A stretch of DNA of 64,000 nt from a bacterium (GTDB taxonomy: Bacteria > Campylobacterota > Campylobacteria > Campylobacterales > Sulfurovaceae), in assembly GCA_018822805.1 (NCBI GenBank), contig JAHJJU010000015.1:1-64000 (forward strand), in the 5' to 3' direction. The notes under the pieces are model-generated. The model had not been told where the DNA came from. It was given only the letters and a program-made list of their open reading frames with translations, and made no database searches. Of the stretch, positions 22,276 through 24,420 are shown piece by piece (position 1 is the stretch's first letter; every line of letters begins with the position of its first letter). A program made the position numbers and the translations under genes.

Positions 22276-23322
22276 ATGAAACTTCTTGTCTCTGCTCTTG
22301 AACCCTCTTCCAATCTTCATTTGAAAGAGGTTCTTAAACACAGTAATAATATAGAACTTTTAGGTATTTTTGACAAATCTCTAGGTGACCCTCTCTATGA
22401 CATCAGTGACATGGCGATCATGGGTGTGGTTGATGCCATTAAAAAATTACGATGGTTTTTTAAAGTTGCTGACGAGATGGTGACACTGGCAAAAAATGCC
22501 GATAAAATTTTACTTATGGATTCATCAGGATTTAACCTTCCTCTTGCAAAAAAGCTAAAAACCACTTACCCAAAAAAAGAGATCATCTACTATATTCTTC
22601 CACAAATTTGGGCAAGCCGTCCCAAAAGAGCTAAAAAGTTGGAACGCTACTGTGATAAACTTTTAGGCATTTTACCGTTTGAAGTCAACTATTATCAGAG
22701 TAAAGCTCAATATGTCGGTCACCCTTTACTTGATGAAATAAAGGTTAACGGAAGTGGCGACTTCAGTCCCACAAAAAACCAAAATACCATCGCTTTTATG
22801 CCGGGAAGTAGAAAAAGTGAAATATCTAAACTGCTCCCCATTTTTAAAGAAGTACGTCAAAAACTCTCTGACAAACGGGCTATTTTAATCATTCCTAAAA
22901 CCTTTTCTGATGAAAAAATCAAAATACTTTACGGCGATGTATCCGAATTTGAAATAGAAAAAGAGACCCATACAGCTTTAGCTAAGTCCGAGTTTGCTTT
23001 TATCTGTTCAGGTACGGCCACTTTAGAAGCAGCCCTTATCGGAACTCCGTTTACGTTAAGTTATATTGCTAAAAAAATAGACTTTTTCATTGGTACCAAG
23101 ATTTTAGGCATTACTCAAGTAGGACTTGCCAACATCATTCTAACCCACCACAACCATACAACTTTACATAACGAACTGTTGCAAAAAGCAGTAAATGTTG
23201 AAAACTTGTTAAAAGAATATTATGAAACAGACCGAACCATTTTTTCTCAGAAAGCTCAAGAATTAAGAGCGTATCTTGGTCATGGCAGTTCTGAGAATGT
23301 TGCACGGATTATTCAATCTTAA
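22276..23322 (+). CDS. lpxB: Lipid-A-disaccharide synthase
   Basis: GT19 glycosyltransferase joining UDP-2,3-diacylglucosamine and lipid X in lipid A synthesis at the inner membrane. YYILPQIWASRPKRAKKLE, YVGHPLLDEI, FMPGSRKSEI and CSGTATLEAALIGTPF are typical. At 348 aa it is of normal length. Its TAA stop is in the same frame as queH, six codons before the queH ATT start. Confidence 0.93.
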   Translation: MKLLVSALEPSSNLHLKEVLKHSNNIELLGIFDKSLGDPLYDISDMAIMGVVDAIKKLRWFFKVADEMVTLAKNADKILLMDSSGFNLPLAKKLKTTYPKKEIIYYILPQIWASRPKRAKKLERYCDKLLGILPFEVNYYQSKAQYVGHPLLDEIKVNGSGDFSPTKNQNTIAFMPGSRKSEISKLLPIFKEVRQKLSDKRAILIIPKTFSDEKIKILYGDVSEFEIEKETHTALAKSEFAFICSGTATLEAALIGTPFTLSYIAKKIDFFIGTKILGITQVGLANIILTHHNHTTLHNELLQKAVNVENLLKEYYETDRTIFSQKAQELRAYLGHGSSENVARIIQS

Positions 23323-23337
23323 ATTAAAGGAAGCACC

Positions 23338-24420
23338 ATTTTAGTTCATATCTGCTGTGCTGTAGACAGCCACTATTTTTTACAAAAGCTTCAAAATGAG
23401 TATCCAAATGAAAAACTTATAGGGTTTTTTTATGATCCGAATATTCATCCTTATAGTGAATATAAACTACGTCTACTTGATGTTCAACGCTCCTGCAAAA
23501 TGCTTGGAATCGAACTTATCGAAGGTGAATACGATACTCATAATTGGTTAGAGGCTGTACGTGGTTTTGAAAGAGAACCTGAAAAAGGTGCCAGATGTGC
23601 CATCTGTTTTGACAGACGTTTTGAAATCACAGCCCAAAAAGCAGATGAGTTGGGCGAAAAGATCTTTACCTCTACACTCTTAACCAGTCCTAAAAAATCT
23701 TTAAGACAGCTCAAACATGCCGGTGAGGCACTGGGTGAAAAATTTGGAATTAGCTTTGTTGCTCCAGATTATCGAAAAGCTTCGGGAACACAAGAACAAA
23801 ATATCTTAGCGAAACAAGATGCCCTCTATCGTCAAGACTATTGTGGTTGTCTTTTTGGACTCACCATGCAACGTGAACAGCAACAAAAGCTGGCTGATGA
23901 ACTTTTTTCACCTCTCTCCAAACAGATACAACCTGAGTCCATTGAAGCACGCATTGAGCTCTATGAACAACGATGGAGTTATGAAGAGAATAACATGGCG
24001 TACAAAATAGTCAAAGAGCGTTTTTTAAATTGGCGTCAACTGCATGGTCTATTAAAAGTGAAAAAAGAAACCGTTCCGGCTCATTTTCTACCCTACTCTA
24101 CGCTAAAAAGTCACTATACACGAGGAAAGATAGATGTTCAAATTGGCAACTTACACTACATGAACCGAGATGAAGTCAAGTTTATAACATTAAGCTGCTA
24201 TAATGAACTAGGAGAAACAAATTTTGCAACGGTAAATGAATTAATCTTCAATACTCCATCATTTGAAAAAGAGCTTAAAATTAGAAATCAGTTAATTAAT
24301 AATGCTTATGATTTATCCTCAATATTGGTCGTTGACTCAATTCCAACACAAAAAGTTGAAATTGGTTATAAAAGCCACATTTATGAAGATGTAAAAGAGG
24401 TTCTTATAAAGATTTCATAA
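23338..24420 (+). CDS. queH: Epoxyqueuosine reductase QueH with apparent ATT start
   Basis: Fe-S enzyme for the final step of queuosine synthesis in tRNA wobble position 34. The ORF track starts at ATG 23500, but homologous sequence begins 54 codons earlier: ILVHICCAVDSHYFL carries the invariant double Cys, and FFYDPNIHPYSEY follows. Between the lpxB stop (same frame) and this motif there is no ATG, GTG or TTG. The only candidate with AAAGGAAG at correct spacing is ATT at 23338, exactly where the initiator Met is expected. Other conserved Cys are in GARCAICFDRR and YCGCLFGL. A further 160-aa C-terminal region follows. The start codon is rare or a sequencing error. Confidence 0.85.
   Translation: MLVHICCAVDSHYFLQKLQNEYPNEKLIGFFYDPNIHPYSEYKLRLLDVQRSCKMLGIELIEGEYDTHNWLEAVRGFEREPEKGARCAICFDRRFEITAQKADELGEKIFTSTLLTSPKKSLRQLKHAGEALGEKFGISFVAPDYRKASGTQEQNILAKQDALYRQDYCGCLFGLTMQREQQQKLADELFSPLSKQIQPESIEARIELYEQRWSYEENNMAYKIVKERFLNWRQLHGLLKVKKETVPAHFLPYSTLKSHYTRGKIDVQIGNLHYMNRDEVKFITLSCYNELGETNFATVNELIFNTPSFEKELKIRNQLINNAYDLSSILVVDSIPTQKVEIGYKSHIYEDVKEVLIKIS

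What the first reader, a model, noticed from the sequence alone, without database searches (positions are those of the whole stretch)
23338..23349. queH appears to start at ATT
The in-frame stop of lpxB lies only six codons upstream, and the invariant HICC motif begins four codons downstream. No ATG, GTG or TTG exists between them. ATT sits where Met is expected and has AAAGGAAG at proper distance. ATT starts are very rare and in the known case (infC) are regulatory, so this may throttle queuosine synthesis or reflect a mutation.
Basis: seen in the sequence. Interest (0 to 1): 0.55.

Follow-up and report, generated by a model that had tools for sequence, protein, structure and literature searches.

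The report
Conserved non-AUG start of queH
In a group of sulfur-oxidising bacteria, the gene for a tRNA-modifying enzyme (QueH) begins with a rare, weak start signal (ATT, ATC or ATA instead of ATG); it has been kept, together with a strong ribosome-binding site, across many species, so it is a real and probably regulatory feature rather than a sequencing error.

Summary
queH (23338-24420, PF02677) has no ATG/GTG/TTG between the lpxB stop and HICC; ATT at 23338 has AAAGGAAG at normal spacing. In the window's genus (Sulfurovum-like) 25 of 29 queH genes have ATT, ATC or ATA there; about half of Sulfurimonas do too. Of 148 distinct loci, 47 start at such an AUH codon: 45 have AGG 6-9 bases upstream (most often 7, as for GTG/TTG starts), 44 have TTA as codon 2, and 43 have a pyrimidine at -1. 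The tree needs 13 switches between AUH and canonical starts. ATA is rare at the start but common where the same codon is an internal Ile. Background ATG use is about 84%; in the genus's queH it is 4/29. Three more families with likely AUH starts turned up: an EptA-like transferase, an MscS-like channel and, tentatively, an amidase. The likeliest mechanism is fMet initiation at AUU, rescued by a strong SD, giving low and probably IF3-sensitive output, as reported for infC, pcnB, cvfC1 and ccpN. Initiation at AUH is strongly inferred; the throttle and IF3 steps are untested. New member of a known kind, unusually well conserved.

The parts
23338..23340 (+). ATT start codon of queH (AUU; fMet expected)
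   Evidence: no in-frame ATG/GTG/TTG upstream to the stop; aligned codon is ATT/ATC/ATA/ATG/GTG/TTG in relatives
23326..23333 (+). Shine-Dalgarno sequence AAAGGAAG; its AGG (23328-23330) ends 7 nt before ATT
   Evidence: AGG at 6-9 nt in 45/47 AUH-start loci, mode 7
23341..23343 (+). codon 2, TTA (Leu), nearly fixed behind AUH starts (44/47)
23338..24420 (+). queH, epoxyqueuosine reductase QueH, 360 aa (PF02677 over residues 1-175, C-terminal ~185 aa without a Pfam match)
23347..23358 (+). HICC motif at residues 4-7 of QueH
22276..23322 (+). lpxB, lipid-A-disaccharide synthase; its TAA (23320-23322) lies 15 nt upstream of the queH start
   Evidence: PF02684, TIGR00215

Best explanation
queH is translated from the AUU codon at 23338, decoded by initiator tRNA as formyl-Met, with the AAAGGAAG Shine-Dalgarno sequence holding the 30S subunit in place so that the poor codon-anticodon match is tolerated. 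The weak codon keeps QueH synthesis low and, because IF3 rejects AUH initiation complexes, makes it sensitive to initiation-factor activity. This AUH-plus-SD arrangement has been kept or re-evolved many times in Sulfurovum and Sulfurimonas, probably because little QueH is needed. Shown by comparison: the start position, its conservation, the SD. Inferred: fMet identity, low output, IF3 sensitivity, benefit of low output.
For: 25/29 same-genus genomes have AUH at the start position; 44 distinct loci have no in-frame canonical codon upstream at all, plus 3 whose only upstream canonical codon is 8 or more codons away with the SD at the AUH. AGG 6-9 nt upstream in 45/47 AUH loci against 20/55 ATG loci with any AGG in the last 20 nt; mode 7 is shared with GTG/TTG starts. 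Codon use at the site behaves like a start, not like Ile: ATA 2/47 against 36.5% of Ile codons in the same genes, and 8/25 where the codon is internal (Fisher p 0.002). 10 third-base changes among the AUH rows and 13 AUH/canonical switches on a 139-row tree, at least 7 forced by well-supported branches. ATG is 84% of SD-supported starts in five sampled genomes but 4/29 for the genus's queH. Same context as E. coli infC: AGG 8 nt upstream, T at -1, codon 2 AAA. AUU/AUA starts with strong SDs gave about 10% of AUG output in S. aureus (PMC13009471); IF3 represses non-canonical starts (PMC2268962, PMC5472188).
Against: No protein or ribosome data. Four same-genus species and whole sister genera use ATG, GTG or TTG, so a weak start is not required. 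Upstream neighbours and spacing vary, so no single regulatory circuit is implied. Third-position G is only 8.9% at fourfold sites in these genes, so 4/29 ATG is also near what an indifferent third base would give. Independent-pair tests for SD and TTA point the same way but have only 7 supported pairs (median p about 0.06-0.13). infC is not an AUH gene here, so the classic IF3 feedback partner is absent.
Confidence: 0.68

Rival explanations
1. The AUH codon is a tolerated relic: an ancestral QueH had a longer N-terminus with Ile here, the upstream ATG was lost, and the Ile codon behind a good SD became the start. Its third base drifts because QueH expression hardly matters; there is no selected throttle.
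For: Helicobacter-type and Sulfurovum-family g3 genes have an upstream ATG/GTG/TTG with Ile (or Val) internal; the non-start set is exactly the Ile codons; ATG share in the genus (4/29) is close to neutral third-base expectation given G3 of 8.9%.
Against: ATA is strongly depleted at the start (2/47), so the third base is not free. The SD, TTA codon 2 and -1 pyrimidine are kept with AUH, implying selection for working initiation. Similar AUH starts occur in unrelated families without an Ile history.
Confidence: 0.25
2. The real start lies elsewhere: another non-canonical codon upstream, readthrough of the lpxB stop giving an LpxB-QueH fusion, or a frameshift.
For: The lpxB TAA is in frame with queH in the window.
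Against: SD position is fixed relative to AUH; the peptide upstream of AUH is not conserved and in-frame stops lie 1-8 codons upstream in most loci; many loci have no lpxB upstream or a stop directly before the AUH. No shared slippery sequence.
Confidence: 0.04
3. Sequencing or assembly error, or a private mutation in this strain.
For: The window's genome is a 121-contig draft.
Against: Same codon class in 25/29 same-genus genomes and in single-contig Sulfurimonas genomes.
Confidence: 0.01

Closest known systems
E. coli infC (IF3) AUU start
   Same: AUU, SD with AGG 8 nt upstream, T at -1, A/T-rich codon 2 (AAA)
   Different: infC is autoregulated by its own product; in this genus infC starts with TTG and QueH is not an initiation factor
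E. coli pcnB AUU start (Binns and Masters 2002, as cited in PMC13009471)
   Same: a chromosomal RNA-processing enzyme gene kept low by AUU
   Different: different gene and phylum; details not read here
S. aureus cvfC1 (AUU) and ccpN (AUA) starts (PMC13009471)
   Same: AUH start conserved across species with a strong SD
   Different: Firmicutes with an extended SD; output measured there, not here; here the codon alternates among ATT/ATC/ATA and switches to ATG/GTG/TTG repeatedly
Streptomyces sigR GTC start (PMC5472188)
   Same: non-canonical start with a strong RBS; IF3-repressed
   Different: GTC rather than AUH; a sigma factor whose stoichiometry matters

Membership tests
QueH (PF02677) | profile match over the curated cut-off across the domain | tested here: met
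   203.8 bits, cut-off 23.5, profile 1-173 of 175
QueH (PF02677) | works in a genome with the Q pathway and lacking QueG | tested here: met
   tgt present, QueG domain PF08331 absent; queA and queCDEF not searched
Genes with a genuine AUH (AUU/AUC/AUA) start | no canonical start in frame that could make the protein | tested here: met
Genes with a genuine AUH (AUU/AUC/AUA) start | SD at start-codon spacing | tested here: met
   AGG ends 7 nt upstream; 45/47 loci at 6-9 nt
Genes with a genuine AUH (AUU/AUC/AUA) start | conservation of the codon class across species | tested here: met
   25/29 in genus; 47 loci in two families
Genes with a genuine AUH (AUU/AUC/AUA) start | protein N-terminus or ribosome density at the codon | not testable with these tools
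   no proteomic or ribosome-profiling data at hand
IF3-regulated non-canonical starts (infC, sigR) | expression falls with excess IF3 and rises in IF3 fidelity mutants | not testable with these tools
   needs a bench test

The most novel reading that the evidence does not exclude
Sulfurovum and Sulfurimonas use AUH starts as a recurrent, conserved device in several gene families (queH, an EptA-like transferase, an MscS-like channel, perhaps an AmiC-like amidase), a set of genes whose translation answers together to initiation fidelity (IF3 or initiator-tRNA state) and whose starts are widely mis-annotated.
Probability: 0.2. Interest if true: 0.75.

Novelty: new member of a known kind. Interest (0 to 1): 0.57.

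Why it matters
Conserved AUH starts are known for only a handful of bacterial genes in the literature found here. This adds a metabolic tRNA-modification gene with a deep, repeatedly switching record that shows what context goes with AUH (SD at 7 nt, pyrimidine at -1, A/T-rich codon 2), and it points to more such genes that start-codon callers miss. It makes testable whether weak starts are selected to hold an enzyme low or merely tolerated.

Tried and rejected
Sequencing error or private mutation: rejected by relatives. lpxB readthrough, upstream start and frameshift: rejected on SD position, stops and varied upstream genes. Riboswitch near queH: no Rfam match at E<=1. infC as a clade-wide AUH partner: it starts TTG. 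First control (213 ortholog families) made queH look unique, but that sample lacked orthologs of rarer genes; a scan for late canonical starts then found others, so 'unique to queH' was dropped. A TAG in the +1 frame (ATH-TTA-G) as a coupling stop was considered: the overlap with the upstream gene's stop occurs in a few loci (distance -7) but not in the window, so TTA is better seen as part of the start context. L234 (RluA-like, own genome) was judged a false AUH candidate: an in-frame ATG lies where, from general knowledge of the RluA family, the protein is expected to start.

Full report
What is there. The finding was checked base by base. lpxB (PF02684) ends with TAA at 23320-23322, in frame with the next gene. 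The next gene, queH (PF02677, 203.8 bits), can only begin at ATT 23338: ATT TTA GTT CAT ATC TGC TGT GCT. The next in-frame ATG, GTG or TTG lies deep in the conserved domain, 59 codons after the lpxB stop. AAAGGAAG (23326-23333) stands at normal distance. QueH is the only epoxyqueuosine reductase found in this genome (QueG domain absent) and tgt is present.

Relatives. The genus is Sulfurovum-like (record titles). The start codon is ATT in 14, ATC in 9, ATA in 2 and ATG in 4 of 29 same-genus genomes (last five codons of the list from loci). In Sulfurimonas (g15) 43 of 74 listed genomes have ATH at this position, 29 ATG and 2 TTG; a few of the 43 may have an upstream ATG, because only some were read in context. 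Sulfuricurvum-like g43 listings are all ATG, GTG or TTG. A second set, Helicobacter-type genes and the Sulfurovum-family genus g3, has an upstream ATG/GTG/TTG, so there the codon is an ordinary internal Ile. These are kept apart in all counts.

Is ATH really the start? In 148 distinct loci, 44 have no in-frame canonical codon at all between the preceding stop and ATH (25 ATT, 17 ATC, 2 ATA), and 3 more (L003, L064, L138) have only an implausible one 8 or more codons upstream. In these 47 loci AGG lies 6-9 nt upstream in 45 (29 of them at exactly 7), the same mode as for GTG/TTG starts; only 20 of 55 ATG genes have any AGG in the last 20 nt. Codon 2 is TTA in 44/47 against 15/55 for ATG genes (TTA is 28% of Leu codons in the same genes) and -1 is a pyrimidine in 43/47 against 27/55. 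Within Sulfurimonas alone TTA follows ATH in 42/43 and ATG in 16/29 (Fisher p 1e-5). These p-values ignore kinship; independent-pair tests go the same way but have only 7 well-supported pairs. ATA is 2/47 at the start but 36.5% of Ile codons in these genes and 8/25 where the codon is internal: the site is read as a start, not as Ile. E. coli infC has the same context: GGAGGAATAAGGT ATT AAA.

History. On a 139-row protein tree built without the start residue, AUH versus the rest needs 13 changes (at least 7 on well-supported branches) and ATT/ATC/ATA interchange 10 times among AUH rows. Direction cannot be settled. Upstream neighbours differ between AUH loci (lpxB in several, other genes, or no nearby upstream gene), so the ATH-plus-SD unit travels with queH and does not depend on one coupling partner.

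How unusual? ATG is 652 of 779 SD-supported starts in sampled parts of five genomes, a rough rule-based estimate. Among 213 ortholog families from the same genomes and loci, queH alone had conserved coding reaching tens of codons upstream of the first canonical codon. A scan of long ORFs with late canonical starts then found further families, tested with orthologs: an EptA-like transferase (PF08019 + PF00884) with ATT/ATA/ATC starts behind AAAGGA or a similar purine-rich stretch in 9 Sulfurovum loci, TTG or ATG in others; an MscS-like channel (PF00924) with ATT/ATA/ATC in 7 Sulfurimonas loci, ATG in others; and, less surely, an AmiC-like amidase with ATT/ATC in a few Sulfurovum loci and TTG in others. 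AUH starts are therefore a recurrent minority mode in these bacteria, with queH the most widespread case seen here.

Mechanism. AUH codons pair with initiator tRNA at two positions; IF3 destabilises such complexes (E. coli: PMC2268962; Streptomyces sigR: PMC5472188). In S. aureus, AUU and AUA starts with strong SDs gave about 10% of the AUG reporter, up to 30% for ccpN in rich medium (PMC13009471). By analogy the queH AUU should give low, SD-dependent, IF3-sensitive output. The conserved SD with AUH, and its frequent absence with ATG, fits stabilising selection on a modest rate reached in different ways. None of this was measured. The main rival is that the codon is a tolerated relic of an internal Ile and that QueH level hardly matters; the neutral expectation for G at the third base (8.9%) makes 4/29 ATG unremarkable on that view, while the ATA depletion and retained SD speak against full indifference.

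Verdict. Observation confirmed; mutation or error refuted; throttle plausible. It is a new, unusually well-documented member of the known kind 'conserved AUH-start gene'.

Noticed in passing
L278:287-1853 (-) (G021:C7) and L333-L338, L340, L343, L345: EptA-like phosphoethanolamine transferase (PF08019 + PF00884) with no usable canonical start; ATT/ATA/ATC behind AAAGGA or a similar purine-rich stretch is kept in 9 Sulfurovum loci, while others have TTG or ATG.
   Followed up: yes
L307:18118-19984 (-) (G162:C1) and L354-L359, L380: MscS-like channel with a signal peptide starting at ATT/ATA/ATC behind AAAGGA in 7 Sulfurimonas loci; others have ATG.
   Followed up: yes
L259:7346-8443 (-) (G031:C8) and L384-L388: Signal-peptide N-acetylmuramoyl-alanine amidase-like protein that seems to start at ATT/ATC behind AAAGGA in a few Sulfurovum species and at TTG in others.
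   Followed up: partly
L204, L210, L220, L226, L228 and others (infC of the genus): infC starts with a conserved TTG behind GAAGGTAA, not AUU as in E. coli.
   Followed up: partly
window 23863-24417 (+): QueH here carries about 185 extra C-terminal residues with no Pfam match; the full-length protein is shared across Sulfurovum and Sulfurimonas relatives.
   Followed up: no
L157, L158, L160-L165 (Sulfurovum-family genus g3); L115-L125 (family f2): queH with a short N-terminal extension and an upstream canonical start, so that the same Ile codon is internal; one has GTC (Val) there.
   Followed up: partly
L232:12775-13285 (+) (G000:C1): A 170-codon frame made of a repeated peptide (VIAPYPTQIRYN) with differing spacers, which looks like a CRISPR array.
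   Followed up: no
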